The notes beneath the pieces are model-generated. The model did no database searches, was not told the origin of the DNA, and was given only the letters and a program-made list of their open reading frames with translations. Shown piece by piece: positions 20,976 through 62,600 of a stretch of DNA of 64,000 nucleotides; position 1 is the stretch's first letter, and the number at the start of each line of letters is the position of its first letter. Made by a program: the position numbers and the translations under genes. This DNA comes from Ascidia mentula (taxonomy: Eukaryota; Chordata; Ascidiacea; Phlebobranchia; Ascidiidae): contig OX387198.1 of the NCBI GenBank assembly GCA_947561715.1, forward strand, positions 16,120,001 to 16,184,000, written 5' to 3'.

Positions 20976-21082
20976 GTGGGTATCTTTATGATGAATGTAC
21001 AATAAAAATCTTGCTGCCACGCATATTATATTTCAAAAATCTGTCCCTCTGGCTCAAATAAATGTTTTATTCACCAACGTTT

Positions 21083-37242: not shown

Positions 37243-37456
37243 GTGAGTCCAGTATTATTACAGAAGACAGTGATTGATAATCCCTAATAAAAAGCAGATC
37301 GGATTGAACACAAGGATCAAAGTATTTAGCAGACGTTTCGAACGCTGTTTTTAAATAACGTTTTGTAGCAGCATAATTATTGAGGTTTTTTGGGGAACTC
37401 TTGATGATGTTTCATGGTACTTTATAAAGTTTGAGCTGTGTCGCCTTATTTGGAAT

Positions 37457-38086
37457 TGTTACGAATTTTCTTTCCTTCTCGTCACCTTTCACTTTGGTTA
37501 GTCATTGTATCTATTTCATTGTTTTCACCTCTCTTGCTGGCACCTTGTAATTTCACTGTTTTCTTTCGTTGTAACCACTTATTTATTATATTGTTTTACG
37601 CACGTATATCGCTTCTCTCACTTCACTTTCACCACACTAGTTTATTACATTCGTCTCCCCTTTCCTATTATTTTACGCTCCGTTTATTTTTGTATGCCCC
37701 GGATGTGCCGCGTGTCGGAAAGGCGCATCCTGATTGGTTGGCGATTGCATGCAACGAACGATTTCCCTAAAACGAGGAGTCTTCTTCTGGGCGTCGTGTA
37801 TAGTTAGCATCTCTTTTACGGTGTTGTGGATTATTGAGATCTTGGCCAGTTTTGTACTGTTTTTATTCGTTTTATAGTTGAACACGACGTCCAATAAGTG
37901 AAATCAGCCTGGGTTACTTTGGCTTTGTGGTGAGCCGTTACTGCAGGGTTCTGGGCAGTATCAGAATTAGGGAGGCAGTTTTGTGCAAAGTACCGAATTA
38001 GGTAGAAGGGTTAATTGGGGGATAACATCGCCACCCAAAAACATCTAACCGCTTAATTACAAAGCTGCCGAAATAATTCCGTAACA
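37457..38086 (+). repeat. 5' LTR of the young gypsy element
   Basis: A 630-bp LTR with T-rich, promoter-like first half (CTTTCACTTTGGTTAGTCAT) and terminal TGTTACG...CGTAACA. About 1-2% different from the 3' LTR. Confidence 0.95.
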
Positions 38087-38195
38087 ACTTGGCGAGCACG
38101 CCAGGACCCTGTCACCACACCCGGCTGGTTTTACTGGGAAGACTCCCACGTGTATTTTGGTTTTATGATATTTTAAAGGTTGGTTTTTCTTAACA

Positions 38196-41100: not shown

Positions 41101-42934
41101 AGCGCAACTACTCGCCCACGCGAAAAGAGCTGCTCGCCGTAATATTTGCGACCAAGCTTTACCGTTGCTATCTCCTTGGTCAAAAATTTATGTTACGGAC
41201 TGACCATTCTTCGTTGAGGTGGCTGTGGAAGTCAAAAGAATTATACGGGCAATGCGCGCGCTGGGTCGAACATCTCTCCGCTTATGATTTTGATATACAT
41301 CACAGGGAGGGAAGCAAACACCGTAACGCGGACGCACTTTCCCGTCTAGACTCCCTGGAGGATGATCCAGAATGTCCATACAAGATAGTGGATGAAGGCC
41401 GAGGGATTGAACAGGTTAACGCCGTGGACTTGAAAGCAACCATCGGATATGAACAGAACGAGCTGCTGGAGCGGCAGAGTAACGACCCGGAGCTAGCTGC
41501 CGTAAGAGAATGGGTCAAGAGAGGTATACGCCCGAAATTTAAAGCGATCAAGCGAGAATCCGCCGCGATTCGCCACTACTGGTCCCGCTATAGTGGCTTG
41601 TTACTGAAGGCGGACATTCTTTGCTGCCGCGGAAACTCCTCTTGGGAGGATGATTTAAAAATCGTTTTGCCGACAAGCCTTGTCGGGGAAGCGACGTCCA
41701 GCTTACATGATGATGTACATGGAGGGGGACATTTGGGCATTGCCAAAACGTTAGCCAAAGTTTCCGAGCGGTTTTATTGGCATAAATGGCGCGAATCTGT
41801 CGAGACGTTTTGTCGCAACTGTATAACGTGCCAATACAACAAAAAGCCAACACAACATTTTCAAGCGCCGCTTATACCTTCGCATGAGGATAAACCCATG
41901 CAAAGGATTGAAGTAGATGTTATTGGGCCACTACCACTTACCCGTTCGGGTTACCAATTTATACTGGTAGCCTGCGACCTTTTCACGAAATACGTTAGAG
42001 CGTGGCCGATGCGACACCAAACCGCAAATGAGACCGCTAGCTTGCTTTACCGCAATTGGTTTACGGTGCACGGCGTCCCGGAAACGGTCCATTCCGATAG
42101 AGGGACAAATTTTGAAAGTCACCTGTTTTCCGAGCTGCTGCGCCTGATGGGCTGTAAGAAAAGCCGAACTACGTCATATCACGCGCCCGGAAATGGCGGT
42201 GTCGAACGTAATAATAAGACCATAATAACAATGATAAGAAATTACATACAGAAAGACGAACGACGATGGGACGAGGCGTTGCCAGGAGTAGTCGCGGCTT
42301 ACAACGCAAGCGCCCATGAAGCAACGGGAGAAGCTCCGCACACCCTTCTGACCGGCCGACCGTTGCGCCTTCCGGCAGATTTATTGGGATCCTCCGAGAA
42401 GTGTCAAGACGATCTTACGGAGTGGAGATCGACCAGTTACGCGACGGCCTAGAGCTGGCCGAAGAAATTGTCAGGGAAAGTCTTATGACACAGCGCAAGC
42501 GTATGGAAGACCGCTACAACTTGCGACAACGGGGAAAGCCATACTCGATAGGAGACTATGTGCTGTTAACGAACCCGGTCGTTCCCGTAGGTCGGTGCAA
42601 GAAATTGCAGTATCCCTACAAAGGTCCGTACCGAGTGGTCGAAGTACGCGGGCCTGTGAACTATGTCATTGAAGATGGGACTGGTAAACAACAGACTGTC
42701 CATTTCAATCGGCTGAAACCGACCACAGATACATTCCCAATGCCCGCTGAGCAAACGGCGGAACCTCCGCAGGCTGAAGATCAACAACCTACGTTGGTGT
42801 ATGTATTTAGGCCAAATACAACCCGAGTGGACAATGGAGAGGTATCGAGTTCACCGGATAATTCGGGCGGATGCAGAAGGTCTACACGGACCCGGCGCCG
42901 GCCAGTTCGATTCTCGTCGGAGACACACGTGTAG
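38196..42934 (+). CDS. gag-pol coding region of the young gypsy element
   Basis: Parts in order: a gag region with a coiled-coil-rich C-terminal end and one CCHC zinc knuckle (CYGCGGLGHMRRDC), retropepsin (ALLDTGSSVCLIN), reverse transcriptase (CVDYRKLNELT, STLDLKSGYWQV, and active site AYLDDIIVYS), RNase H (FILDTDTSDTAVG, LRTDHSSLRWL), integrase with HHCC zinc finger (HLGIAKT to CITCQ), DDE core (EVDVIGPLP, VHSDRGTNFES, GGVERNNKT) and a C-terminal GPY/F-like region (YKGPYRVVEV). Gag and pol lie in one long frame for most of the length, as in several gypsy clades. As a fossil it has about one interruption. Confidence 0.93.
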
Positions 42935-42978
42935 ACCAATGTCCAACAGGAGTAGGACAATTCTTGGGTTGGGGGGAG

Positions 42979-43607
42979 TGTCACGAATTTTCTTTTCCTT
43001 CACGTCACCTTTCACTTTGGTTAGTCATTGTATCTATTTCATTGTTTTCACCTCTCTTGCTGGCACCTTGTAATTTCACTGTTTTCTTTCGTTGTAACCA
43101 CTTATTTATTATATTGTTTTACGCACGTATATCGCTTCTCTCACTTCACTTTCACCACACTAGTTTATTACATTCGTCTCCCCTTTCCTATTATTTTACG
43201 CTCCGTTTATTTTTGTATGCCCCGGATGTGCCGCGTGTCGGAAAGGCGCATCCTGATTGGTTGGCGATTGCATGTAACGAACGATTTCCCTAAAACGAGG
43301 AGTCTTCTTCTGGGCGTCGTGTAGTTAGCATCTCTTTTACGGTGTTGTGGATTATTGAGATCTTGGCCAGTTTTGTACTGTTTTTATTCGTTTTATAGTT
43401 GAACACGACGTCCAATAAGTGAAATCAGCCTGGGTTACTTTGGCTTTGTGGTGAGCCGTTATTGCAGGGTTCTGGGCAGTATCAGAATTAGGGAGGCAGT
43501 TTTGTGCAAAGTACCGAATTAGGTAGAAGGGTTAATTGGGGGATAACATCGCCACCCAAAAACATCTAACCGCTTAATTACAAAGCTGCCGAAATAATTC
43601 CATAACA
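42979..43607 (+). repeat. 3' LTR of the young gypsy element
   Basis: Matches 37457-38086 nearly base for base and is preceded by the polypurine tract. Confidence 0.95.
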
Positions 43608-49050: not shown

Positions 49051-49084
49051 TACCTGAGTAGTAGAGTCCAGCCCGTGAACGCTA

Positions 49085-49350
49085 TCACTCTTCACTTATA
49101 AGGGATCGGGCACTCTTCACTTATGTGGGATCGGGCACTCTTCACTTATGTGGGATCGGGCACTCTTCACTTGGTCTGAGATCGGGCACTCTTCACTTGG
49201 TTTGAGATCGCGCACTGTTCTGTGGAATCGCGCACTGTTCTGTGGGATCGGGCACTGTTCTGTGGGATCGGGCACTCTTCACTTGGTTTGAGATCGGGCA
49301 CTGTTCTGTGGAATCGCGCACTGTTCTGTGGGATCGGGCACTGTTCACTT
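49085..49350. repeat. Minisatellite in the left TIR
   Basis: Degenerate units of about 20-25 bp made of GATCGGGCACTCTTCACTT or GATCGCGCACTGTTCTGTGG with variable tails (TATGTGG, GGTTTGA). About eleven units. The frames through it are repeat artefacts. Confidence 0.92.
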
Positions 49351-49475
49351 ATATGGAATTGGTCCCATATTGTAGGAAATATAACTTAGAGTGGTTCATT
49401 TGGTGAATGAGTTGGTCGAGTAAGGACGTAAACCCAAGTGAGAAGTTTTTTGAATGAGCATTACTCACTAGATGG

Positions 49476-49483
49476 TATAAAAG
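49476..49483 (+). promoter_or_regulatory. TATA box of the left BIR gene
   Basis: TATAAAAG, 53 bp before the ATG at 49536; the same box is mirrored at 62127-62134 in the right TIR. Confidence 0.6.
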
Positions 49484-49535
49484 AGTTGTGACTGTCAAGG
49501 CTTTCGGTTTGTTCACTTCTGAGTTGAATAGAAAT

Positions 49536-49904
49536 ATGTCATTTCTTACTGGTCGTTCTCTCTTTGGACGAAGAGATAGAAGTGATGCTCAATACTCTTT
49601 AACCTCGGTCATATGTGCCCCGGGTGGATTGGTCGAGGGAACGAGGAATTATCCTTGTTTGGACCCTACAAATGTTAATATGGCTGAAGAGAGAAAACGT
49701 ATAGATTCGTTCAAATATGGATTTTGGCCTTATCATACCCGATCAACACCGGCGGATTTAGCCGAAGCTGGATTTTACTTTATTGGTATTCACGATAAAG
49801 TGAAATGTTGGTATTGTGGATGTTGCCTCTTTAACTGGGAACTAAATGACGTTGCTTGGGAAGAACATGCCAAACATTCTCCTGGATGTGGTAGAATCCG
49901 TTAA
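49536..49904 (+). CDS. BIR-domain (IAP-like) protein, left TIR copy
   Basis: Starting at the ATG after the TATA box, this copy carries the whole BIR domain: RIDSFKYGFWP, LAEAGFYFIG and the zinc site CWYC ... EEHAKHSPGC. The TIR ends at that last Cys, so the tail differs from the right copy and is very short (GRIR). BIR domains bind caspases or IAP-binding-motif peptides. It differs from the right copy by one residue in the shared part (GIHDK against GNHDK). The short tail comes from the position of the repeat boundary. Confidence 0.88.
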   Translation: MSFLTGRSLFGRRDRSDAQYSLTSVICAPGGLVEGTRNYPCLDPTNVNMAEERKRIDSFKYGFWPYHTRSTPADLAEAGFYFIGIHDKVKCWYCGCCLFNWELNDVAWEEHAKHSPGCGRIR

Positions 49905-50510
49905 TATCCCTTAACTAAATAAATTATAATATTAGAATAAATGCTTGCAAAGTATAATTGTAATTCAGAGAAACTCCAGACGTGGACGGAGGCAATTATA
50001 AGAGCTTGTCCACGAGCCGAAAAACTGCAGAGGCGGTCTTTAAGTCGCCGGGTGCTTCGCGAGAGCAAATAAATCGAATTGCCCCGAGTGGAAATGGCGC
50101 AATGGCGCCCACCGGCGGTGACGAAAGTGTTAGTTGCGTTGAAAGGTTTGTAACGTTTTGTGTGTTTTAATTTTTTTTGATAACCATGACCTGATATGTT
50201 TGTTTACAGCGAAATTAGACCCGAGGCAGCGGTTGATTTGGACTCACTATTGACACAGTACACAGCTTCACAAGAGTTGGAAATAGAAGAAATTTGCAAT
50301 GATGCAGAAGCGAATTCTTCTAGACCTTCCTCTCTTATTCAAAGAGGTTGGTAAGTTCTCAGACGTGGTTGCCCTTGGACCCAGAATTATACTCACTTTT
50401 CTTGTAGGGGAAGCAGTGGTGAAGCCCAACAACGACCACAGGAAAATGAGCGAGATAGACTCATCGCTCGGAACATCAGAGCCATTCAAACACATCGAAG
50501 AATCGGTAAA

Positions 50511-53500
50511 GTGACAAGCGTCTTCAACTTCCGCGCACCAATTTCCTACGAAAACTTAAATAATATTGCCGATGAAGTTTTGCGCTTTGGAAATCGAGCC
50601 TTCAGGATCAATGCCAGTTTTGGCTTTTCTTTGGAAAATGTAGCCGGAGAACAACATTATTTCCACTCGAGTTGTAATAATTATCAAGTTTTTGACACAC
50701 CTTATGTTGTCCGCACACGCGACGACTTGATTGCTTTTCTTGAAAGCCTAGAAGACAAAGATGACTTAGAAAGTGTGCGACTTCTGCGACCTGATAGCTC
50801 CTGGAAACCTAACGAAATTTTAAATGTAACCTTTTATGTTTACCACATGCAAAGTCCATTAATTGGAAAGGGGGTCAATTTGCCTCTGTACGTTTCGCGA
50901 AATTCCGGTCTATTTGCTTTAAACAAAACACCAAGTGGACAAGTTTATTCCGACAACCTCTGCTTTTTTCGTTGCCTCGCAATACATTTGGATTCGAGTG
51001 GGAGAGACGGTATTTCATCGAGGGCTATTGAACTATGTAAACAGTTTTCTGTACACGCCGGTTTGGATCACATTAATTTTCCTGGTGTACAAATGGACGA
51101 CCTGCCTAATTTGGAAATTTATTTTAAGATCAACATAAATGTTTTCCAACTGGTTGCCGGGGAAGATGTCAAGTGTAAACTTGTTTGGCGTAGTGTTGCA
51201 CGCTTAAATGACAAACGGAATCGAGTACTCAACCTGAATTTGTTTGAGAAACATTTTAGCTACATCTTTGACATAAATAAATACTCATCGACCTTTTGTT
51301 GCCGGATTTGTTCAATTTCTTTCGACAGACTCGGAAAATGTGAAGAACATCAGAAATCATGTCAGGCTGTTACAAAGGAGGTCTTTAAGGCAGGTTTCTT
51401 CTCTGAAACAGCAAGTGTGATTGATCGATTAAGAGAGGTTGGCATTGACGTTGATCAATCAATGAATTACTTTCCTTTTCGTGCTTGCTTTGATTTTGAG
51501 AGCTATTTTTCGAGGGACAACTTGCCACCCCCAGCCGCTAAGACCACTTTGCTCTCAGAGCATATTGCCTTGAGTGTGTCAATTTGCTCAAATGTGCCTG
51601 GGTACACGTCACCAAGGTGTATTGTATCCACAGGGGACTGTGGGGATTTAATAAAAAGATTTGTTTCCTACCTTAAAGAAATACAAGAAGCTGCTGCGTC
51701 GTCTATGCTTCACCGATTTCAGGGCATCAGGAAACAGCTTGAAACAATGCTAGACCATTCTTGTAAGTTGGAGTCTTGTGATCCACGCAAGCACCCTCTT
51801 CAACGATTATCATCCGACTTACATCTATACTTAACTAATCTAACCTGCTTATCTTTCAATGGAGGTAAATATGACATCAACTTGGCAAAGAGACATTTGA
51901 TTCCAACTCTATTGGCCGATGACAAAATATTAAATGTAATCAAAAGAAACAATGATTTCATGTCTATTAAAACTACGTCCTTTAACTTTCTTGATTTACG
52001 CAATTATGTTGCGGCAAATTATTCTTATGATTCCCTGTTGCAAGCCTTTAACTGCAAAACACGCAAAGGTTTTTTTCCTTATGAATACATGACTTCAGTT
52101 GAAAAGTTACAAGAAACTTCATTGCCTCCAATCACAGCTTTCTACAGCTCACTGAAAGGTTCAACTATAACCGAAGATGAGTACCAGTTTTGTTTAGACA
52201 CATGGCGTGACGAAAAAATGCACACCCTGAAAGATTTTCTTGTGTGGTACAATAACCGTGATGTAGTTCCTTTTCTCGATGTTGTTTCTAAGCTTTGCAA
52301 CTTTTACGAGGAACGTGGTGTTGACGCGTTTAAAGAGGTAATAAGCGTACCTGGTTTAACTCTACAATATTTAATGAGGTCTCTTGATCGAAACACGCCT
52401 CTTGCACTGTTTGGAGAAAGATTTAAGGACATTCACAATCTCATTCGGGCCAATATAGTTGGAGGTCCAGCAACAATTTTTCACCGCTACCACGAACAAA
52501 ATGAAACCAAAATCCGCACCGTCGACTACGGTACTAAAGCCCGTGTATGTCAAGCAGTCATCGGCTTTGACTGCAATGCTCTATACCTCTGGGGGATTAT
52601 GCAACAGATGCCAACCTCTTTTTTCACTGTTTTGAAATACGAAAATGAAACCCAAGGATTCAGTTTGATGCAATCTTCACGTCACGGTCACATGGCTCGG
52701 GTGTGGCTTGATTGGTGCGCACAAGAATGTGGTCTATTTATTCGTCATCAGTTCAACAAGGGGGGAGAAGCTCGTCTCGGTCAACGAAATTTACCCGTGG
52801 ATGGGTACTGCGCAGAAGTCAAAAAAGTTTTTCAATTTCACGGCTGCTTTTTTCATGGCTGTGATCGCTGTGGTGTCCATTTCGATGACCTCGAAAAAGC
52901 TACAAAAGCCCGTGAAAAGACAGCTGAACATACAGCATACCTCGGTAGTCTTGGATACGAGGTTGTTGAAATGTGGGAATGTGATTGGTATGCTTTGCAA
53001 AAGAACAATCAGCGAGTGCGTGATTTTGTTAGATCTCACCCAGTTCCCAGGTTCCACATCCCAAAAAATAGAAACTTTTTCACCATGCGAGAAGCATTGC
53101 GGAAAGGTGACTTGTTCGGGCTAGTGGAGTGTGACATCATTGTTCCACCTGAAAAAAGAGAATATTTCAAGGAATTAAGCCCTGTGTTTAAAAATACAGA
53201 TGTATCCAGAGCTGATATTGGACAGTATATGCGTGGACATGCAGAGAAGTACGGTGTTTTGAAAACTAAACGAAGGTGCTTAATAGGGAGCATGATGGGG
53301 AAAAAAATCTTGCTTGCCACCCCTCTTCTAAGATGGTACTTGGAACATGGACTTGTTTTGGAACACATATCAAGTGATTTGCTTTGATCCTAAGCCCTGC
53401 TTCAAAACCTTTGGTGATGAAGTTACTGCAGCACGACGTTTGGGTGATGTCAACCCTGACAAAAAAATCATTGGAGACACGTTTAAACTTTTAGGTAATT

Positions 53501-54379
53501 TTTTTAAATTTTTTTTTTTTTTTTTTTTGAAATTTATTGATTGTTAATTGTGCTTTATTTCCAGGTAATAGCTCCTACGGCAAGATGCTAACGAACAAAA
53601 AGCTTCAACGTGATATCTTCTACCAGGAAGCTAAAGATGCTCGGGTGTCAGTTAATAACCCGAGGTTCCAGCACTTGGAGGAAATCAATGATGACCTGTA
53701 TGAAGTCAAGATGAAAAAGCGTCGGATCAACCAAAATTTACCAGTGCACATTGGATTTTTCGTTTACCAATACGCCAAGCTGAGGATGCTACAGTTTCAT
53801 TACGACTTTTTCGATCGATTTGTCGACAGGGAAATGTATCAGCTGTGTCTCATGGACACAGATAGTTACTACGTGGCGATGGCTGGTAAACGTTTGGATG
53901 ATGTGGTTCGTCCCCAACTGTTGAAGGAGTTTTATGAAACTTATCACATGTGGTTTCCATCTCCAGCATGCGACCTGCATCGCTCAGAATTTGTCAAGAG
54001 GCGTGTTTCGGGAAAAGAGTTTACCCAATTGGAATGCTGTCAGAGGCGAGAGCGAGATGACCTACGCACCCCTGGGCTTTTTAAAGTTGAATGGAGTGGC
54101 ACAGGTGTAGTGGCTCTTACGGCCAAGACCTATTATTGCAAAGGAAGCACCAACAAACAAACTTGCAAGGGGATCAACAAGAAGCAAAATCCACTGACGT
54201 TTCAAGCTTATCTCGAAGTGTTGAAAACGGGGGAAAGCGTGTCGGGTACAAACACTGGCTTTCGCACTTTGAATCAAAGAGTTTACACGTATAAACAGAC
54301 AAGAAGTGGGATCACTAATTTCTACGGCAAACGTAAAGTTCTTGCCGACGGGGTTTCAACCGTCCCCCTCGACTTATAA
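50511..54379 (+). CDS. Protein-primed DNA polymerase B (pPolB) region of the Polinton
   Basis: Replicates the element by protein priming. Visible parts: exonuclease motifs FDFES, FNGGKYDINL and YNNRDVV; polymerase motif A, GFDCNALYLW; motif B with GNSSYGK; motif C, MDTDSYYVAM. The N-terminal region includes a CxxC...H..SC zinc-like cluster (CCRICSI to EEHQKSC). The coding region is not one uninterrupted frame; short open stretches upstream from about 49982 have splice-site-like edges and may be a spliced leader. As a fossil it has about one or two interruptions. It heads the rightward gene block. Confidence 0.93.
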
Positions 54380-54911
54380 GTGTTTCATTGTTTTCGTGCT
54401 TGTGTTGTACGTGCACTGCTTAATAATAATAAAGTGATCTGTTCGAAACCTAAGCTAATAAAGTAAGAAGAGAAGTGAGGCAGCCCAATCAGCATAATGT
54501 TAAAAAAAAACTGTTCTTAAACCTTCACTGTTCAGGTAGTGATTCATCTTAAAAGGGTTGCGCCATCGCTGGTAAACCATTCATTGGGAGTGAGGCACAA
54601 TGTGAGAGGTGAAGCAATCCCGAACAAGATGAGCGCTCATGTATTGCACAATTTGTTGGAATATTTTATGGCAGGTTTTGAACGGGATCACGTCATTTTG
54701 ATTGTATATAAGACGGTATAGATACTTTATTCCTCATCAACGAACAGAAGCAACCAACGGAGAAGATGTCACTCAACAGACGTATTGTTCCCGACACCGT
54801 CGATTCAACCAGACAGCAAAGCGCTACACAGCTGCTGACAGAGATATGCAGAAGTCGCCGACCTGCAGGTATGTCTTGACGAGGTTTTGCTTTTCTTCCG
54901 TTTCCTAACTT

Positions 54912-55394
54912 TTGGTTGCTGCAGGTACCAGACTTTGCTGTGCAACGTTGTATGTGAAGTTTAGAGGAGAATGTTTTGACCACGACGAACTCCGGAAACT
55001 GGCTCCTTCCCTGTTTCCAGAAACACCCTACGTGTTGCTATTCCCCAAACCGTTTGCCGACGCCTTCAGTCGCGTGCAGGTGGTGTACTGGTCCACAGCA
55101 GACGCGGTGGAAGATTGTATCATCGCCGACCGAGTGAAGAATATGGCAATCGACGTGGCTGTCGATGGGATTGCATTAAGTTTTAAATCTAAATCTGTGT
55201 TTTCACCCGCCGCGTATTTGAGACCAATAATAGAAAATGCCGATTCTTTTGAATTTTACCAAAGTCGCTCGCAGTTGATTGATTCGGTTGTTCGCGAACA
55301 AGTGCTTCAAGTGCAAGAAATTTTTATTTCTACCGCTCAAGACAAACATTCCGATGTTGGTGCTGCTTTTCTGTGTTTTCCACTTTCACAATAA
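54912..55394 (+). CDS. Unknown Polinton protein, about 160 residues
   Basis: Not recognised. Soluble-looking, with mixed alpha/beta composition, aromatic-rich start (TLYVKFRGECFDHDEL) and PYVLLFPKPFADAF. A short ATG-bearing stretch at about 54765-54870 with a donor-like end suggests a 5' exon. Last gene of the rightward block, just before twin hairpins. A role in replication or packaging is only a guess from position. Confidence 0.6.
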   Translation: MVAAGTRLCCATLYVKFRGECFDHDELRKLAPSLFPETPYVLLFPKPFADAFSRVQVVYWSTADAVEDCIIADRVKNMAIDVAVDGIALSFKSKSVFSPAAYLRPIIENADSFEFYQSRSQLIDSVVREQVLQVQEIFISTAQDKHSDVGAAFLCFPLSQ

Positions 55395-55405
55395 ACCTTC
55401 CCTCT

Positions 55406-55446
55406 CTCTCCTCCTTCGGAGGAGAGCACTCACCTTCGGTGAGTGC
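55406..55446. terminator. Twin perfect hairpins between convergent Polinton gene blocks
   Basis: CTCTCCTCC-TTC-GGAGGAGAG is followed at once by GCACTCACC-TTC-GGTGAGTGC; they share one G, both have 9-bp stems and triloops, and an A7 then G7 run follows. They lie only 12 bp after the stop of the rightward block and 70 bp before the stop of the leftward protease gene. A bidirectional 3'-end or insulator role is inferred. Confidence 0.55.
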
Positions 55447-55516
55447 AAAAAAAGGGGGGGAAACTCGACTTGTACATACCACTATCGTTGTTGTTGCAAA
55501 TTATTGTATTAAACGA

Positions 55517-55963
55517 TTACATGTTTGAAACGAACGCACAGACAGTTTGATCATTCTCACGCAAGTCAGAAGAAAATGTATCGACTATACGAGACATAGA
55601 AAATCCACGTGCACGAAACAGTAAATAATACATACAATGAGGGCCGCAGGCAGATGAGAGGGGGTGCTGTACAATGCGACGGTTCCATTTCCATTGAGTG
55701 GCATTTCGGTTTAGAAAATTTACAAGCTCCTCGTGGATCGGGGCACGCCCGAACGTGTCATAAAACTCGCCCCGTCCTTCCCCATCAAAAAACATCGCAA
55801 GCCAATGCATTCCGGGTCTATTACTGGGATCAGTATTCACAATATATGCTTTGGGATAGGGGTGGTTCAACGTAGTGAGTTCATCCCGCGCATAGACACC
55901 ATAAAACACGGATCCAATGGCTTGGTCACGAGATAAAATAGATGCGATCTGAAGTTCGTCCAT
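55517..55963 (-). CDS. Adenovirus-type maturation cysteine protease (Polinton PRO)
   Basis: 148 residues, matching the compact Polinton protease. Catalytic set visible: His53 in MHWLAMF, Asp69 in FYDTFGR, Gln99 in IVQHPL, Cys106 in SACGPHCMYYL. Cleaves capsid precursors in related viruses. It directly abuts the capsid gene (stop and start one base apart), so the two are likely co-transcribed. Confidence 0.93.
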   Translation of the reverse strand: MDELQIASILSRDQAIGSVFYGVYARDELTTLNHPYPKAYIVNTDPSNRPGMHWLAMFFDGEGRGEFYDTFGRAPIHEELVNFLNRNATQWKWNRRIVQHPLSSACGPHCMYYLLFRARGFSMSRIVDTFSSDLRENDQTVCAFVSNM

Positions 55964-57271
55964 TTAAGCCGAGTAATCGAAAATTACGTTTTTGAATTTG
56001 TCAATCTCCAATACATTGTCATATTCCGCGTACACCAAGATATTTATAGTGTTCGCGAGAGCCGTGCCAAAGTGAACCTCCAAACGAATGTTACCGTGCT
56101 TAACCAAATCAAAGGTAGCCAGATCTGCCATATCAGGACTGAGGTCAAAGCAATAGAGTGTGAATCCCTGCCCATATTCGGAGAGTGATATTCCACTACC
56201 GGCGTTTTCAAAAAATGTTCCCATCCCAGTAAAAAGGCTAATGAAGCTCCTCGCATAATTTTTTGATGTGAAATTTGGTTGAAGCGCCTTTCCCGGCACG
56301 ATTTTCCCGTCATGGTACAGAGCCAGGTAATTCACATCAAAGTGTTTAAAATTAAACGGATTTTTTGCATAAGCCCCATTAAATGCGTCGTTGTCAACAA
56401 ACCCCACCACTACTCGCTTTGGGATCTGGCCACGTATAAATGTGTCATGTGTCGTGGAAAGGTTTCCACGTGGGACCGAGTACACTTGCACAGATGTCCT
56501 CGTGATTGGATATTTGGCAGTAGCCTTCTCCAATGCTTTTATATGTCCCATCAAAACAGGGGCACTCGGACGTACTTTACGAACATACAACCGAACGTCT
56601 TTAAGGTTGACCTTGTAACCGGTATTCGCCTCGGCCATAATCGAAAACGGATCTTTGCTCCTGATCAAGCGGATCTTCACGTCAACGCCATTTAATACAT
56701 AACGAAACTGATTCATCATGTCGATATGGAGCTTGCCTAACATTTCAATGTCACGACTACCACTTGCACAGTCGCGTCTGGTGATATATCCAGCATTTCC
56801 AGCATCCAAAGTCTCAAACTTTCCTGCCGTATCTTTATGCCACATCGCCGCAGTTAATTGGGATTCTTTTGCATCATTCCCGAAGCTTAAAAGGCTCTCG
56901 AGGTAAGCACGGTAGGGATACGTGTTACTAGCAGGTGTGACAACTTTGTTGTTTAAAGACAAGTCAACTTGATCCCATAGAGCATGTAGCCAATAATTAC
57001 AAGGACCAACGGCTGCGTCTGCGTCAATATTTGTCCCATCTGCCTTGGTTATGCGCGCTGTGCACAGAAGCATAGTATTTGCTAGATCTATGTAATCTTC
57101 CCCTGTCCCAGAAACGGTAAATTCTATAGGGCCGGCATCACTCAATGTCGAAAGGGGCATAAATTCCACCCACTGGGAATGTTCGATGCTGACTTGTGTG
57201 GGTTTTAGCGCAAATAAATCAAGTTCACTTTTCAAGCATTTTCCAGACTGTTGGTTAATGAGGCTGCCCAT
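55964..57271 (-). CDS. Major capsid protein, double jelly-roll (Polinton MCP)
   Basis: 435 residues, the usual Polinton MCP size. The N-terminal region has the family pattern QVSIEHSQWVEFMPLSTL, then IEFTVSGTGEDYIDLANTML and NYWLHALWDQVDLSLNN. Forms the hexameric capsomers of an icosahedral shell in the family. The frame looks whole. Confidence 0.92.
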   Translation of the reverse strand: MGSLINQQSGKCLKSELDLFALKPTQVSIEHSQWVEFMPLSTLSDAGPIEFTVSGTGEDYIDLANTMLLCTARITKADGTNIDADAAVGPCNYWLHALWDQVDLSLNNKVVTPASNTYPYRAYLESLLSFGNDAKESQLTAAMWHKDTAGKFETLDAGNAGYITRRDCASGSRDIEMLGKLHIDMMNQFRYVLNGVDVKIRLIRSKDPFSIMAEANTGYKVNLKDVRLYVRKVRPSAPVLMGHIKALEKATAKYPITRTSVQVYSVPRGNLSTTHDTFIRGQIPKRVVVGFVDNDAFNGAYAKNPFNFKHFDVNYLALYHDGKIVPGKALQPNFTSKNYARSFISLFTGMGTFFENAGSGISLSEYGQGFTLYCFDLSPDMADLATFDLVKHGNIRLEVHFGTALANTINILVYAEYDNVLEIDKFKNVIFDYSA

Positions 57272-57272
57272 G

Positions 57273-57695
57273 TTATGAAAATATATCCGCTTTCTTTCGT
57301 CTTGGGGAACGTTTTTTCTTCGTCTTTTTTCTGCGTTTAGTTGCAGGTTCTCCGGGTGGGTGTGTAAAGGACCGCTGCGCAGAACGTAATAATGATTTTC
57401 CCGCCTCTCGTGAACGTTTTATAGCTGCTGCCCGTGGTGATTGCCCAGCCAACATGTCACCGGCGAATTGGGCACCTGATTTAATCACTTCTTTTCCGAT
57501 ACGGCTTGCGCCCGATTTAAGTAGCGGTAGTACAGCCCTACCAAGACTCGCAAACACACTACCCAATCCGTGGCCACGTTGTGAAACTGCTCCACTGAAA
57601 AAAGGCATTCCATGACCAGCATGGGCCACATAGTAATTCTCATAGTCTTTAATATCGTTTTGCACACAATATGGAGTGCCGCATTGACGCTGCAT
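57273..57695 (-). CDS. Small basic core-like / minor capsid protein of the Polinton
   Basis: 140 residues with Gly-rich segments (HAGHGMPFF, QRGHGLGSVF) resembling adenovirus-type protease sites, an amphipathic middle (LGRAVLPLLKSG) and a very basic tail (KRRKKTKKKRSPRRKK) suited to DNA binding. Similar small proteins accompany Polinton capsid genes; naming by position and composition only. Confidence 0.7.
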   Translation of the reverse strand: MQRQCGTPYCVQNDIKDYENYYVAHAGHGMPFFSGAVSQRGHGLGSVFASLGRAVLPLLKSGASRIGKEVIKSGAQFAGDMLAGQSPRAAAIKRSREAGKSLLRSAQRSFTHPPGEPATKRRKKTKKKRSPRRKKADIFS

Positions 57696-57702
57696 TTTCC
57701 GT

Positions 57703-58509
57703 CTAAATGTATAAGGGTGTTTTTCGAAAGTGAAGTGTAGCGATCACCCGACCGCTTTCAAAAGGAATCAAACCCCCGAATTCGTTTCTTAAACTTAGTT
57801 CTACACTCGTGATGGTACTTCCACGTAATGGTTGATACGATAGACGTGAGAACCTTTTAAACACTGTCTCTCCAGGCTCTCCTTGAGCTGAGATCGTATC
57901 GAGAAGGGGAACAAGTGAATCGCCCACTATACGCGGTTCAACGAGATCACAATAGACGAAAATGGTCGAAAATTCATTCTCGAGAGTGCACCTTCCTTCG
58001 GTTGTGTGGCTTCCTTCGTAAAGGTGTGGAAGTGGAGTTGTTTGAAAGCCCAAAAGTTGCCCAAGGTCATCAGAGAGCGCCATTTGACTTTCCCTAGGGA
58101 GGTTTATAGTGGTCAAACGCGTCACCGGATCAAATACAAATAAATTATTAATCACACCCCCATCGGGGTTAAAATCATCGGTTTCTGATTCCTGAAGAAG
58201 TCGTTTAAATTCCTTGGTGCCTTCTGTTTTAACTAATTTTGTCATTGTACTTGCAAGTTCCTTTCCCGATTTATAAAGCCCGCTTGGAAGCGTCAACTTT
58301 TTAGTAGCTTCGGCCCCCACTCTCATTCCGAACCACACTTCTGACCCAATATTTTTCCATGAGTAGGGATATTGAATGTCACTTAACGCCACTTCCCATT
58401 TTCCCTGATCCAAGTGAATGCTTTTGGGAAGTTTAGTTTTGAATTGGGTCGTTGTATTTTCGGGGTAAAACTCTAAACTACTATTGCTCGGAAGAGTCAC
58501 GTAAAACAT
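57703..58509 (-). CDS. Penton (minor capsid, single jelly-roll) protein of the Polinton
   Basis: 268 residues starting MFYVTLPSNSSLEFYPENT, then FKTKLPKSIHL and GKWEVALSDIQYPYSW, the family's typical N-terminal pattern. Forms capsid vertices in related elements. Its 5' end overlaps the small membrane-protein gene by 29 bp. Confidence 0.85.
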   Translation of the reverse strand: MFYVTLPSNSSLEFYPENTTTQFKTKLPKSIHLDQGKWEVALSDIQYPYSWKNIGSEVWFGMRVGAEATKKLTLPSGLYKSGKELASTMTKLVKTEGTKEFKRLLQESETDDFNPDGGVINNLFVFDPVTRLTTINLPRESQMALSDDLGQLLGFQTTPLPHLYEGSHTTEGRCTLENEFSTIFVYCDLVEPRIVGDSLVPLLDTISAQGEPGETVFKRFSRLSYQPLRGSTITSVELSLRNEFGGLIPFESGRVIATLHFRKTPLYI

Positions 58510-58723
58510 TCTTGTTTTTCAAACTCGGTGCTGGCAACAGATACCCAACCCCACTTGCCAGTAACGCTGTCCAAAGATTCGGGTTTGGGTGTCCCAACGT
58601 CAAATTCACAAGACTGGTGATGACTACAACAAAAATGAGAAACACTTGACAAAAAAACACAACTTCTTCACGAGGCAAACTTCGCCCACACCACACCCAA
58701 TCTCCTCCTGAAGTCATTGACAC
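58481..58723 (-). CDS. Small membrane protein of the Polinton
   Basis: 80 residues with one strong hydrophobic helix (VVFFCQVFLIFVVVITSLV) and a weaker second (LWTALLASGVGYLL). Small two-helix proteins at this place are common in Polintons; function unknown. Overlaps the penton start and abuts the integrase stop. Confidence 0.65.
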   Translation of the reverse strand: MSMTSGGDWVWCGRSLPREEVVFFCQVFLIFVVVITSLVNLTLGHPNPNLWTALLASGVGYLLPAPSLKNKNVLRDSSEQ

Positions 58724-58724
58724 G

Positions 58725-59789
58725 CTATACGCTGTAATGTACGACGTCCTCTGCGTTGAGCCACGAATTAAAACTATCGGGGTAGTCGACCCATTTTATA
58801 AGCCATTGCTCTACCCCGTGCCTTTTTCGCTTTTTCAATATCTTCTCAATGTTATAAAGGTCCTTTTCCACACTTTGGAGTTCCTCATCATAAAACGACC
58901 CTTCTATCGGTTCACGATTATAATCGACTAGAGAATAGGTATGGGGATTGGTTTGGCGCCGGGATTTTACAAAAAACACTTCTTCCGTCCAGTTTGGTAA
59001 GTAACCTTTTTTAAACTTTGTACGGGTAACTGCGATTCTAACTGGGGAACCCACTGCAAACTTCCAGGACATAGGTGGATGCGATATATCGCCGTATAAA
59101 TTTTCCCAGACAGTATCCTGATTATCTTGTTTCACCGACGAGGGAGTAGTTCGAATGCTGCGGTGATAGCTGTTGTTGTAGCTTTCTACTACATCATCTA
59201 GCACGTCAATATATTTCGATGTCTGGGCATACGTGAAGTACCGCCATAAACGCTCCTTCAAGGTCCGATTAAATCGCTCAACAATGGAGGCTTTTGTTTC
59301 GTCATTGTACGTCGTAAAAAAATGAATACCGTGATTTTGTAACCAATTTTGCAAAAGTTTATTCACAAACTCTTTGCCACGATCTGTCTGTAATTTCTGC
59401 GGTTGGCGGTCCCCATCTTGCAAGATTTTTTCGAAAGCTCGCACAAGACTTGGCCCCGTTTTTTGTTTTATTGGGACAACCCACGCATACTTTGAAAACA
59501 CATCAATAACGGTAAGTAAGTATTTGAACCCATTGTTGTAACGACTTAGTTTCACCAAATCAACCAAATCAGCCTGCCACTGAAAATCAATACCTCCGAC
59601 TACAACACGAAGACGTTTAAAATTTCGACGTAGAGGTTTGTGGAGTGTGTAAGTGTCCTGCTTTCGCAGCCAATCTTTTACTTCAACTCTTTTTCGTTTT
59701 GAAGCACGGGCGAGGCGCTTCACGCCCCCGAGACTTCCTGGTTGCAAGGGAGAATAATATTCCTCAGAAAACTTTACAGATTTACCCAT
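58725..59789 (-). CDS. Retroviral-type integrase with chromodomain (Polinton INT)
   Basis: 354 residues. Core DDE: Asp74 (ADLVDL), Asp136 (LQTDRGKEF), Glu171 (SIVERFNRTL). The core is preceded by KQDTYTLHKPLRRNF and followed by a C-terminal chromodomain-like segment (QWLIKWVDYPDSFNSWL). Catalyses insertion with the 6-bp duplication seen at the ends. The frame looks whole. Confidence 0.93.
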   Translation of the reverse strand: MGKSVKFSEEYYSPLQPGSLGGVKRLARASKRKRVEVKDWLRKQDTYTLHKPLRRNFKRLRVVVGGIDFQWQADLVDLVKLSRYNNGFKYLLTVIDVFSKYAWVVPIKQKTGPSLVRAFEKILQDGDRQPQKLQTDRGKEFVNKLLQNWLQNHGIHFFTTYNDETKASIVERFNRTLKERLWRYFTYAQTSKYIDVLDDVVESYNNSYHRSIRTTPSSVKQDNQDTVWENLYGDISHPPMSWKFAVGSPVRIAVTRTKFKKGYLPNWTEEVFFVKSRRQTNPHTYSLVDYNREPIEGSFYDEELQSVEKDLYNIEKILKKRKRHGVEQWLIKWVDYPDSFNSWLNAEDVVHYSV

Positions 59790-60451
59790 TGCTTTGCAAA
59801 TCGTCTATTCTGCACCGGTGGTGGTTTAGATCCAACTGGGTGCTGGCCTGGCGCGGGTCTTGTATTTGTATACCCAAGCAATGACTTTGGTGCATTTGCT
59901 TTTTCCAATGCCGACTGGAAATCAGTCCATCCGATAGGCGTCGTTGACGTCGATCCGCGGCGTCGCACAGCATTGTGAATCAGATCCTCAATGTTGCTTC
60001 CCTTAACAACTTCCCCTTTAACCGAAAGCTCTCCTGTCGAGTTGAAATCAATTTCTGGACTTTCCTTGATAATATCAATGACTCGCTTTGCTTTGTATTT
60101 AAACGTCTTCGGCATAGAATCAATTACACGACTTTCGACAACATTTTTCTTTGTTTCCTCAACTTCTCCAGCCACAGTTTTTCCTCGGGCTTCTTCGGTA
60201 ACCGTAAACTTAAGTGGTTTATTCACAAGGGTGTCCTTATAAAATTGATACCGTTGAAGTGCCTGGTTGTAAAGTTTTACTTTGTCTTCCATCGTCCCAG
60301 GCTCGTTTATGATGTCCTTCATTTTCCGATCGAGTGTGGTTAATGCGTTTTCAACAGGCGTCGTTTGTGAAGGTGTGTTTCCCTGTAGACTTTTCAAAAT
60401 ACGAGGGTCCACCAAAGCAAATTTTTGAACACTTTCCATTTCACTTCCCAC
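59774..60451 (-). CDS. Conserved-looking Polinton protein of unknown function
   Basis: 225 residues, charged, with predicted helices in the middle (RKMKDIINEPGTMEDKVKLY). A two-part layout with a TPIGWTDFQSALEKAN motif near the C-terminus is familiar from other Polintons, but the role is unknown. Overlaps the integrase start by 16 bp. Confidence 0.65.
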   Translation of the reverse strand: MGSEMESVQKFALVDPRILKSLQGNTPSQTTPVENALTTLDRKMKDIINEPGTMEDKVKLYNQALQRYQFYKDTLVNKPLKFTVTEEARGKTVAGEVEETKKNVVESRVIDSMPKTFKYKAKRVIDIIKESPEIDFNSTGELSVKGEVVKGSNIEDLIHNAVRRRGSTSTTPIGWTDFQSALEKANAPKSLLGYTNTRPAPGQHPVGSKPPPVQNRRFAKQWVNL

Positions 60452-60821
60452 CAGAAAAAAGACTAGTGACGGCGGGTATTATGCTACCAATCAACGGAGC
60501 TAACAACGCTGATAAAAATCCTCCACGTTGTATAATCTGACGTTTTCGTTTTGCAGGAGTTGACTTTTTTCCAAGTTCACGGATGCCGTTTTTGTATCTG
60601 CAAAGTTTGGCTCGTTCCGTGGGTGTCAATGTTACGTTCCCCTTCAAAACGTTGTATGCACATTCGCAAATGCACTGGATTAATTCACGATCAGCGACTT
60701 TTATAATCGACCGAGCAAGCTTGGGTTTGGCTTTAGCGAGTGTCGTAAGAACTGGAGCTTGGTCATGTAGTCGCCTTGACATGCTACAGAGATTTTGGTA
60801 CGTACACAATCTGGGTTTCAC
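60441..60821 (-). CDS. Small basic Polinton protein with C-terminal hydrophobic segment
   Basis: 126 residues: basic helical body, Cys-rich ELIQCICECAYNVL, a KRKRQIIQRGGF junction that looks like a protease site, and a hydrophobic end (LSALLAPLIGSIIPAVTSLF) resembling a membrane-active peptide, as in adenovirus pVI-like proteins. Function inferred from composition only. Confidence 0.65.
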   Translation of the reverse strand: MKPRLCTYQNLCSMSRRLHDQAPVLTTLAKAKPKLARSIIKVADRELIQCICECAYNVLKGNVTLTPTERAKLCRYKNGIRELGKKSTPAKRKRQIIQRGGFLSALLAPLIGSIIPAVTSLFSGGK

Positions 60822-61386
60822 CGCGAAAAATATTGGTTCTTAAACGAAATTTTTCTGCTGTGCTCTGCTTGAAGTCAAAAAGCAAATAACCGTGTGGACG
60901 AGTGGTCGTGTCACTATATGATTCCTGAACGGCACGCGTCCGCCCTGGTTGAACTTGCTTGGCAAGATGAGTTATTTGAGATGCGTCTCTTGGATTTTTA
61001 AAAACAACGAGGTAATGCGCGTTCAAGCTGATAGTGCGTTGCTCCTTTCCTTTGTGAAATAAATTCTGAACAATGTATATCACACTTATATTTTTGTGGT
61101 GGCTCCCTTTTGTAAAAAGATTGGTCACGCTTTTGTCGCATTCACTCATTAAATCATCAATAATCAAAAGTGTTCTCTCTGACGAATCAAAATCAGTTGC
61201 CAATCCCCGAACAAATTCCACACCGTTAATCCCTTCGTACGCCCCTTGCCACTCGCCGTAACACCATACAATGCGTTGGGGATTTGGTAAAGTTAACTTC
61301 TCGTTTATGAGACGTTTCACAAAGAACGTTTTACCACAACTAGTCGGACCAGCTACAAGGCAAGTGAAAGGGTGAATAAAATCCAT
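60784..61386 (-). CDS. FtsK/HerA-type DNA-packaging ATPase (Polinton ATP)
   Basis: 200 residues. Walker A GPTSCGKT (residues 13-20), Walker B LLIIDD (73-78), then VIYIVQNLF in the sensor region. Drives genome packaging in related viruses. Overlaps the preceding small protein gene by 38 bp. Confidence 0.93.
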   Translation of the reverse strand: MDFIHPFTCLVAGPTSCGKTFFVKRLINEKLTLPNPQRIVWCYGEWQGAYEGINGVEFVRGLATDFDSSERTLLIIDDLMSECDKSVTNLFTKGSHHKNISVIYIVQNLFHKGKEQRTISLNAHYLVVFKNPRDASQITHLAKQVQPGRTRAVQESYSDTTTRPHGYLLFDFKQSTAEKFRLRTNIFRGETQIVYVPKSL

Positions 61387-61537
61387 GGTGTTTTCGCAAA
61401 CAGATTTTGAACAAACTAAAAGTTTTTTATGTTTGTTGCGCTTTTAAACGCTTTTCTTTAGACTGTTCTTATAGGTTACAACCTCAGCTGCTTCAAGCAC
61501 ATGTTGTTTATTCGATAGAACGAACACAAAACTTAGG

Positions 61538-62074
61538 TTAGTATAGCCCAAAACACTTTAGGAAAGAAATTGCATCTGAATTAGTTATTTCATTTTGTGT
61601 TTCAGCCAGTCTCTTCTCTTCACGAAGGCATGCTTCTTCCCAATTCGGACCGCACACATCTTTTCCTTTACCACTAATTCCGGCAACGAATTGCCCACCT
61701 TTGATTTTGAGAAGAAACTCACATCCAGGAGAATGTTTGGCATGTTCTTCCCAAGCAACGTCATTTAGTTCCCAGTTAAAGAGGCAACATCCACAATACC
61801 AACATTTCACTTTATCGTGATTACCAATAAAGTAAAATCCAGCTTCGGCTAAATCCGCCGGTGTTGATCGGGTATGATAAGGCCAAAATCCATATTTGAA
61901 CGAATCTATACGTTTTCTCTCTTCAGCCATATTAACATTTGTAGGGTCCAAACAAGGATAATTCCTCGTTCCCTCGACCAATCCACCCGGGGCACATATG
62001 ACCGAGGTTAAAGAGTATTGAGCATCACTTCTATCTCTTCGTCCAAAGAGAGAACGACCAGTAAGAAATGACAT
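61538..62074 (-). CDS. BIR-domain (IAP-like) protein, right TIR copy, 178 residues
   Basis: One complete BIR domain at about residues 51-118: RIDSFKYGFWP, LAEAGFYFIG, zinc ligands Cys91, Cys94, His111 and Cys118. The tail of about 60 residues (GKGKDVCGPNWEEACLREEK) continues beyond the TIR into unique sequence, and there is no RING. Start chosen as the first ATG after the TATA box at 62127-62134. The BIR part lies inside the TIR and so exists twice in the element. Single-BIR proteins act as caspase or apoptosis regulators in animals and in baculo- and asfarviruses. The host cIAP family is the likely source (inference). Confidence 0.9.
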   Translation of the reverse strand: MSFLTGRSLFGRRDRSDAQYSLTSVICAPGGLVEGTRNYPCLDPTNVNMAEERKRIDSFKYGFWPYHTRSTPADLAEAGFYFIGNHDKVKCWYCGCCLFNWELNDVAWEEHAKHSPGCEFLLKIKGGQFVAGISGKGKDVCGPNWEEACLREEKRLAETQNEITNSDAISFLKCFGLY

Positions 62075-62126
62075 ATTTCTATTCAACTCAGAAGTGAACA
62101 AACCGAAAGCCTTGACAGTCACAACT

Positions 62127-62134
62127 CTTTTATA
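62127..62134 (-). promoter_or_regulatory. TATA box of the right BIR gene
   Basis: TATAAAAG on the minus strand, 53 bp before the ATG at 62074; the mirror of 49476-49483. Confidence 0.6.
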
Positions 62135-62264
62135 CCATCTAGTGACCAGTGCTCATTCAAAAAACTTCTCACTTGGGTTTACGTCCTTATTCGACCAACT
62201 CATTCAACAAATGAACCAATCTAAGTTATATTTCCTACAATATGGGACCAATCCCATATAAGTG

Positions 62265-62566
62265 AACAGTGCCCGATCCCACAGAACAGTGCGCGATTCC
62301 ACAGAACAGTGCGCGATCTCAAACCAAGTGAAGAGTGCCCGATCCCACAGAACAGTGCCCGATCCCACAGAACAGTGCGCGATTCCACAGAACAGTGCGC
62401 GATCTCAAACCAAGTGAAGAGTGCCCGATCCCACAGAACAGTGCGCGATTCCACAGAACAGTGCGCGATCTCAAACCAAGTGAGGAGTGCCCGATCTCAG
62501 ACCAAGTGAAGAGTGCCCGATCCCACATAAGTGAAGAGTGCCCGATCCCTTATAAGTGAAGAGTGA
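62265..62566. repeat. Minisatellite in the right TIR
   Basis: The inverse of the left array with more units: GATCCCACAGAACAGTGC, GATTCCACAGAACAGTGCGC and GATCTCAAACCAAGTGAAGA types alternate. Open frames on both strands here are repeat artefacts. Confidence 0.92.
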
Positions 62567-62600
62567 TAGCGTTCACGGGCTGGACTCTACTACTTACCTG

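What the first reader, a model, noticed from the sequence alone, without database searches (positions are those of the whole stretch)
49057..62594. Polinton carrying a BIR (IAP-like) gene in each terminal inverted repeat
Seen: the TIRs extend inward to include a whole BIR domain (Cys91, Cys94, His111, Cys118 in the right copy) with its own TATA box, so two copies face inward from the two ends. Known: Polintons carry PolB, INT, ATP, PRO, MCP and penton genes; IAP/BIR genes occur in baculoviruses and asfarviruses to block host cell death. A BIR gene inside Polinton TIRs is not a standard part that I know of. Inference: a captured host anti-apoptotic gene kept in two copies through TIR homogenisation, possibly a host-manipulation trait of a virus-like element.
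Basis: partly seen in the sequence, partly recalled or inferred. Interest (0 to 1): 0.88.

Follow-up and report, generated by a model that had tools for sequence, protein, structure and literature searches.

The report
Virus-like transposons carrying a host survival gene
A family of virus-like jumping elements in what is probably a sea-squirt genome picked up a copy of a host gene of the cell-death-inhibitor type, without its introns, and has kept it as an intact-looking gene, which suggests these elements act, or recently acted, like viruses that need to keep their host cells alive.

Summary
Window 49057-62594 is a Polinton (TSD TACCTG, AGTAGT ends, PolB, rve+chromo integrase, C5-type protease, double-jelly-roll capsid protein). 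Both terminal inverted repeats (TIRs) contain a complete Pfam BIR domain (81.5 and 78.9 bits). The left copy stops straight after the last zinc ligand; only the right copy is a full 178-aa gene. The two-copy TIR is not the normal state: among nine family elements paired at both ends, this one included, seven have a TIR that stops about 10 bp before the BIR start codon, with BIR at one end only. The wider result: BIR lies upstream of integrase in three or four diverged Polinton families (13 of 16 and 9 of 10 integrase loci examined) but in 0 of 6 loci of the next lineage. Its closest non-Polinton relative found here is an intron-bearing host IAP-like gene (C72:807 kb). The Polinton copies are continuous at three of its splice points and share a C-terminal truncation. 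So a spliced host gene was captured, probably once, and kept under constraint between families. Blocking host cell death is the likeliest role, untested. I found no earlier report in the papers I could search.

The parts
49051..49056 (.). target-site duplication, left copy (TACCTG)
   Evidence: read directly
49057..49890 (+). left terminal inverted repeat (extended form, contains the BIR domain)
   Evidence: junction to unique left sequence at 49890/49891 by comparison with two related elements
49476..49481 (+). TATA box of the left copy
   Evidence: consensus match only
49536..49904 (+). left BIR ORF, 122 aa, truncated after the last zinc ligand
   Evidence: Pfam BIR 78.9 bits
49891..50846 (+). 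unique left-end sequence shared with other elements of the family
   Evidence: queried 49905-50846
50847..53387 (+). PolB, first part
   Evidence: Pfam DNA_pol_B_2 1.5e-07
53585..54379 (+). ORF after a frame break, by position the second part of PolB
   Evidence: no Pfam DNA polymerase hit, so assigned by position only
55517..55963 (-). adenovirus-type cysteine protease (PRO)
   Evidence: Pfam Peptidase_C5 9.2e-06
55964..57271 (-). major capsid protein, double jelly-roll
   Evidence: model pLDDT 80.6; Foldseek: Sputnik, PBCV-1, mavirus capsid proteins at 8-14% identity; 2418 homologues, best Phallusia mammillata 66%
57703..58509 (-). ORF at the position expected for the penton protein
   Evidence: position only; no Pfam hit
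58725..59789 (-). integrase with C-terminal chromodomain
   Evidence: Pfam rve 3.7e-16 and Chromo 2.9e-07
60784..61386 (-). packaging ATPase (A32-like)
   Evidence: Pfam Pox_A32 9.6e-05, 22.4 bits against a cut-off of 22.8
61538..62074 (-). right BIR gene, complete, 178 aa
   Evidence: BIR fold model against cIAP1 BIR3; 8 of 12 family-A loci read keep the 178-aa frame
61720..62594 (-). right terminal inverted repeat
62129..62134 (-). TATA box of the right copy
   Evidence: consensus match only
62595..62600 (.). target-site duplication, right copy (TACCTG)
   Evidence: read directly

Best explanation
The element is a Polinton whose lineage captured a spliced (intronless) copy of a host single-BIR, IAP-like gene next to its integrase-side end, most likely before families A, B, C and the C72:17.35 copy separated. 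It has kept the gene since as a one-BIR, RING-less protein of 161-178 aa (supported by anatomy, splice points, distribution and substitution pattern). The TATA box lies inside the TIR in this family and the start codon just inside the unique sequence (seen; use as a promoter inferred). The protein most likely delays host cell death while the element replicates and makes particles, by binding IAP antagonists or caspases, or as a decoy for the host gene's own partners (inferred, about 0.5). The second, truncated copy in this element arose when the right end was copied over the left end, as linear protein-primed genomes with inverted ends can do. This replaced sequence that spans about 1.9 kb in a related element (shown by comparison; the copying mechanism is inferred).
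For: BIR profile hits in families A, B and C and a BIR3-type fold (3d9t_B: TM-score 0.93 by target length, 1.2 A, 42% identity). BIR within 10.5 kb upstream of integrase in 13 of 16 A-type and 9 of 10 B/C/E-type loci, 19 of these 22 within 2.3 kb, and in 0 of 6 D-type loci (32 of the 124 integrase hits, against 38 of the 124 BIR places). In the five D loci read no BIR ORF was seen beside the ATPase. The integrase tree groups the BIR bearers away from D and the outgroups. The host gene C72:807383-809122 has four GT-AG introns; Polinton A, B and C are continuous at its first three junctions and align through the BIR and DVCGPNW. The Polinton proteins and P0001 end near the same residue, where the host protein runs on. 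A BIR tree joins the host gene, Polinton BIRs and P0001 (plus one long-branched host gene, C52:14.26) apart from other IAPs (94.7/76). A against host dN/dS 0.19; in all six pairs compared pS is 0.68-0.97 against pN 0.24-0.32. TSDs perfect in 7 of 9 paired elements; in 7 of 9 the far TIR stops at query base 177, before the ATG.
Against: No expression or biochemistry is available. In the XIAP BIR3 alignment the second groove tryptophan (W323; number and role recalled) is H114 here, so classical Smac/caspase-9 binding may be weak. The tree does not exclude two separate captures (AU p 0.23-0.75), and UFBoot for the whole group is only 76. Within family A variation shows no constraint (6 synonymous, 11 non-synonymous changes, one of them a stop, among 9 copies). 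Four of 12 family-A loci read have a shortened or broken frame. Three of 16 A-type and 1 of 10 B/C-type integrase loci have no BIR on the expected side (one of them, C73:7.25, has it on the other side of an inverted piece). The host gene model rests on splice signals, without RNA data.
Confidence: 0.68

Rival explanations
1. Two (or more) independent captures: family A took the gene from the host separately from families B/C/E.
For: The unconstrained tree places the host gene beside A rather than with B/C; A is closer to the host gene (57.1%) than to B (53.8%) or C (51.9%).
Against: Same side of the integrase in all families, same three intron losses, same C-terminal truncation point and same missing stretch before the BIR (P0001 also lacks most of that stretch). 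The host branch may simply be slow. Monophyly of A+B+C is not rejected (AU p 0.23 and 0.48).
Confidence: 0.25
2. The BIR protein is not anti-apoptotic but acts elsewhere, for example on innate immune signalling or the cell cycle, as several BIR proteins do (recalled).
For: No RING; the groove is altered at H114. The strongest PDB sequence matches are NAIP (BIRC1), though its score sums three BIRs.
Against: The best fold matches are cIAP1 and XIAP BIR3, the antagonist/caspase-9 binding type; W101 and an acidic D105 are kept (roles recalled).
Confidence: 0.3
3. Neutral passenger: a host gene piece carried along without a role.
For: No constraint visible among the few differences within family A; broken copies exist (4 of 12 A loci read).
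Against: Open frame kept across diverged families with pS far above pN, zinc ligands invariant, same side of the integrase.
Confidence: 0.05
4. TIR duplication of BIR is an adaptive dosage change rather than an accident of replication.
For: Seen twice in different form: this element and the palindromic C70:10.656-10.678 Mb element, which has matching TSDs.
Against: 2 of 9 paired elements only; the left copy here lacks its C-terminal third, and one of the two copies of the palindromic element has a stop at codon 145.
Confidence: 0.1

Closest known systems
Polinton/Maverick elements (polintoviruses; adintovirus-like)
   Same: 6-bp TSD, AGT-repeat ends, PolB, rve integrase with chromodomain, adenovirus-type protease, packaging ATPase, double jelly-roll capsid protein; ends and TSD as described for vertebrate Mavericks (PMC8097293, passages read)
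   Different: carries a host-derived BIR gene beside the integrase-side end; no such part turned up in the listings and passages (the listings of 14 and 60 were swamped by unrelated papers)
[quoted passage not shown]
   Same: same broad virus group and a similar kind of cargo
   Different: the words 'apoptosis' and 'IAP' do not occur in its main text, and no BIR gene or host donor is named in the passages seen
Burro giant Gypsy elements of planarians (PMC6431247, passages read)
   Same: a mobile element whose coding region includes BIR and BCL2-like domains; meddling with apoptosis was suggested there
   Different: LTR retroelement with BIR as one domain of a huge polyprotein; here a separate gene in a DNA element
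Baculovirus IAP-3
   Same: BIR protein in an animal DNA virus genome
   Different: three of the four IAP-3 proteins named in the 120 listed hits carry BIR plus RING (P0026, P0027, P0029); the fourth (P0113, 158 aa) lists BIR only; P0026, the one placed in the tree, lies on a separate branch
Host single-BIR gene C72:807 kb of the same genome
   Same: SAGDLL N-terminus (shared with family B), BIR, DVCGPNW linker; 57.1% identical to the window gene over 170 aligned residues
   Different: four introns and a longer C-terminus; sits among BIR-RING genes

Membership tests
Polinton/Maverick | 6-bp target-site duplication and AGT-repeat TIR ends | tested here: met
   perfect in 7 of 9 paired family elements including this one; in the other 2 one end could not be read
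Polinton/Maverick | protein-primed PolB | tested here: met
   DNA_pol_B_2 1.5e-07; the reading frame is broken in this copy; protein priming not testable
Polinton/Maverick | rve integrase (chromodomain) | tested here: met
Polinton/Maverick | adenovirus-type protease and packaging ATPase | tested here: met
   Peptidase_C5 above cut-off; Pox_A32 22.4 bits, just under its 22.8 cut-off
Polinton/Maverick | double jelly-roll major capsid protein | tested here: met
Polinton/Maverick | penton protein | not tested
   ORF 57703-58509 assigned by position only; no Pfam hit
BIR / IAP-like protein | BIR domain with CX2C-H-C zinc ligands | tested here: met
IAP E3 ligase (BIR plus RING) | RING domain | tested here: not met
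   no RING in the 178-aa protein
IAP as apoptosis inhibitor | inhibition of cell death or caspase/antagonist binding | not testable with these tools
   groove residues W101 and D105 kept, second tryptophan replaced by H114 (alignment; residue roles recalled)
[quoted passage not shown]
   reference sequences were not compared; the integrase chromodomain named there is present

The most novel reading that the evidence does not exclude
Tunicate Polintons are (or recently were) true viruses that depend on a captured, intronless host IAP-type gene to keep infected cells alive. Copying of one genome end over the other repeatedly doubles this gene, as an end-duplication route to higher dosage.
Probability: 0.15. 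Interest if true: 0.85.

Novelty: new variant of a known kind. Interest (0 to 1): 0.62.

Why it matters
Whether animal Polintons are viruses with an infectious stage is an open question. A host-derived cell-death-type gene, kept with its frame across diverged families, is the kind of cargo expected of a virus rather than of a purely genomic parasite. The donor-type gene is in the same genome, so capture route, age and function can be tested directly. The end-duplication variants also give a readable record of how linear Polinton genomes recombine.

Tried and rejected
Assembly artefact or chance: rejected by TSDs, many copies and left/right differences. 'BIR is a standard TIR part': rejected, 7 of 9 paired elements lack it at the far end and families B and C have it outside the TIR. 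Relatives in IMG/VR viral contigs: none confirmed with a BIR profile or with the window's integrase. Phage records: none. Single against multiple capture by tree test: unresolved. Domesticated direction (Polinton to host): rejected, because the host gene has introns where the Polinton copies have none, and it sits among BIR genes of the same exon plan (exon plan of the neighbours read by eye from tblastn breaks). A fourth BIR copy (C72:17.35) is interrupted by an insertion with stops; it was left as it is.

Literature: nine paper searches gave no BIR-in-Polinton report in the listings; 920 and 6,688 papers matched, of which 25 and 15 were listed. Passages were read in four papers (PMC11071296, PMC8905726, PMC6431247, PMC8097293); no paper was read whole. 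The key adintovirus paper (doi 10.1093/ve/veaa055) is not held, so a prior mention there cannot be excluded.

Not achieved: a genome-wide capsid-protein count, and a mitochondrial check of the host's identity.

Full report
What is there. Window 49057-62594 is a Polinton flanked by a perfect 6-bp duplication, TACCTG. Its TIRs begin AGTAGTAGAGTCC. It has PolB (in two frames in this copy, the second assigned by position), an adenovirus-type protease, a double jelly-roll capsid protein, an rve integrase with chromodomain and an A32-like ATPase just under the Pfam cut-off. The capsid protein's best database relative is from the ascidian Phallusia mammillata (66%); the next are at 56% and below. This makes a tunicate host likely, though the host was not identified directly.

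The two BIR copies. The right copy (61538-62074, minus) is a 178-aa ORF with one Pfam BIR (81.5 bits); the left copy (49536-49904) has 78.9 bits. The left TIR ends at 49890, directly after the last zinc ligand. From 49891 on, the sequence matches the inner left sequence of two related elements at 98.2 and 97.6%, so the left ORF closes after four more residues. In the stretch compared base by base, the copies differ at 1 of 355 coding and 7 of 185 non-coding sites. The coding difference (I85N) is private to the right copy: the left copy and the ten other family-A ORFs printed have I. Both TATAAA boxes lie inside the TIR.

The normal arrangement. A search with the unique TIR part (window 49350-49560) gave 40 places. 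I paired ends by position into nine elements: the window, C69:17.76, C1:14.75, C73:2.93, C52:7.9, C67:18.67, C70:3.08, C2:12.95 and C70:10.66. A possible tenth pair 46 kb apart (C1:14.862 and C1:14.908) and unpaired ends were left out; that tenth pair also has a far end without BIR. In seven of the nine the far end matches only up to query base 177, that is window 49526, ten bases before the BIR start codon. So the TIR carries the TATA region and BIR lies just inside, at one end. In two of these seven the near-end BIR is itself damaged (C67:18.67, a fragment matching residues 1-69; C2:12.95, a broken frame). TSDs are perfect in seven of the nine; in the other two, one end could not be read. 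In the C1:14.75 element about 1.9 kb lies between the TIR and the inner left sequence where the window has the BIR fragment. The window element therefore carries a copy of its right end over its left end, with loss of left-end sequence. The second exception, C70:10.656-10.678, has BIR and integrase in mirror order with TSD GCGCCT: a palindromic element. C73:7.25 shows an inverted integrase junction. Such fold-back and end-copying products fit replication of linear DNA with inverted ends; that mechanism is inferred.

BIR is a stable part of a Polinton lineage. One search listed 124 BIR matches in the genome, many of them host IAP exons (counts are lower bounds, as the tool says). Of the 12 family-A loci read, 8 keep the 178-aa frame. 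I classified the 32 best of the 124 integrase hits, after dropping three second pieces of split genes, and looked for the 38 best BIR places within 10.5 kb upstream: 13 of 16 at 90% identity or more, 9 of 10 at 56-70%, 0 of 6 at 52-53%. Nineteen of the 22 positives lie within 2.3 kb; three are 5.8-8.6 kb away. A fourteenth A locus (C73:7.25) has BIR on the other side of its inverted integrase piece. In the five D loci read, an ORF resembling the window's ATPase (by eye; a fragment in one of the five) is present and no BIR ORF was seen. Family B has intact BIR ORFs of 161 aa in 4 of 4 C69 copies read, while a related C71:14.84 copy reads 81 aa; in family C one copy has 166 aa and the other reads 127 aa from a later start. 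Their BIR start codon lies roughly 110-116 bp inside the TIR end. Three of the B copies share one flank and are segmental duplicates of one insertion. The integrase tree puts A, B, C and the C72:17.35 copy together, apart from D and the outgroups (the support label of that branch was not printed cleanly after re-rooting).

The donor. The closest host gene found is at C72:807383-809122, in a cluster of BIR-RING genes. Its four introns all have GT-AG ends. The spliced product is 255 aa (model from splice signals only). It aligns with the Polinton proteins through an N-terminal SAGDLL motif (kept in family B), the BIR and the DVCGPNW linker. The first three junctions fall inside the aligned part, and Polinton A, B and C are continuous at each. 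The Polinton proteins end about where the host protein continues into a UBA-like region (label by eye, not tested); P0001, a 186-aa protein from a 1100-bp unnamed contig, ends at the same point. Neighbouring host IAP genes show exon breaks at the same BIR positions (read by eye), so the introns look old and the Polinton form derived. A BIR tree groups these sequences, together with one long-branched host gene (C52:14.26), away from other IAPs with modest support (94.7/76). The order inside the group is unresolved and two captures are not excluded.

Selection. Among A, B, C and the host gene, synonymous differences are near saturation (pS 0.68-0.97) while non-synonymous ones are 0.24-0.32; the only pair with a finite dS gives dN/dS 0.19. 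Within family A the few changes (6 synonymous, 11 non-synonymous including one stop, among nine copies) do not show constraint.

Function. The model has pLDDT block means of 86-97 over residues 41-130 and matches cIAP1 BIR3 at 1.2 A. Against XIAP BIR3 the first groove tryptophan and an acidic partner are kept, and the second tryptophan is a histidine; these residue roles are recalled. A RING-less single BIR could bind IAP antagonists or caspases, or act as a decoy for the host gene's partners. I rate some form of cell-death control at about one in two.

Novelty. BIR domains in a mobile element are known from planarian Burro retroelements (PMC6431247, passages). [quoted passage not shown] I found no report of BIR/IAP genes in Polintons in the listings, but one central paper is not held and the library lacks most subscription journals. 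I therefore call it a new variant of a known kind.

Noticed in passing
C70:10655802-10677759 of G000 (loci L020, L021): Palindromic Polinton with BIR and integrase mirrored at both ends and a matching 6-bp TSD; one of its integrase copies is split in two frames.
   Followed up: partly
C73:7245353-7246138 of G000 (L072): Fold-back junction inside a Polinton integrase gene, two inverted pieces abutting.
   Followed up: no
C69:5669000-5734000 of G000 (L049-L051): Dense host array of BIR-RING genes, 24 BIR matches in 65 kb; an IAP family expansion.
   Followed up: partly
C2:15667621-15713240 of G000 (L043, L044): Four decayed BIR copies (82-84% identical) at 12-19 kb steps, three of them with a piece of the TIR, and no integrase hit; looks like segmental duplication of an old end.
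   Followed up: no
C1:9525597-9528861 and C71:19074848-19087429 of G000: Paired family-C-type TIR ends 3.3 and 12.6 kb apart without a listed BIR or integrase hit; possible non-autonomous derivatives.
   Followed up: no
window 38169-42934: Ty3/Gypsy-type element with a 1427-aa open frame (RT, RNase H, integrase); similar ORFs at 37435-37770 and 42862-43293 suggest its LTRs.
   Followed up: partly
window 14053-14436 / 21147-21530 and 20469-21061 / 27575-28161: Near-identical ORFs repeated about 7.1 kb apart: a tandem host duplication.
   Followed up: no
left ends of family-A elements (L038 2419-3071): The inner left sequence occurs as two diverged tandem copies (74%), suggesting a small repeated gene family at the PolB end.
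   Followed up: no
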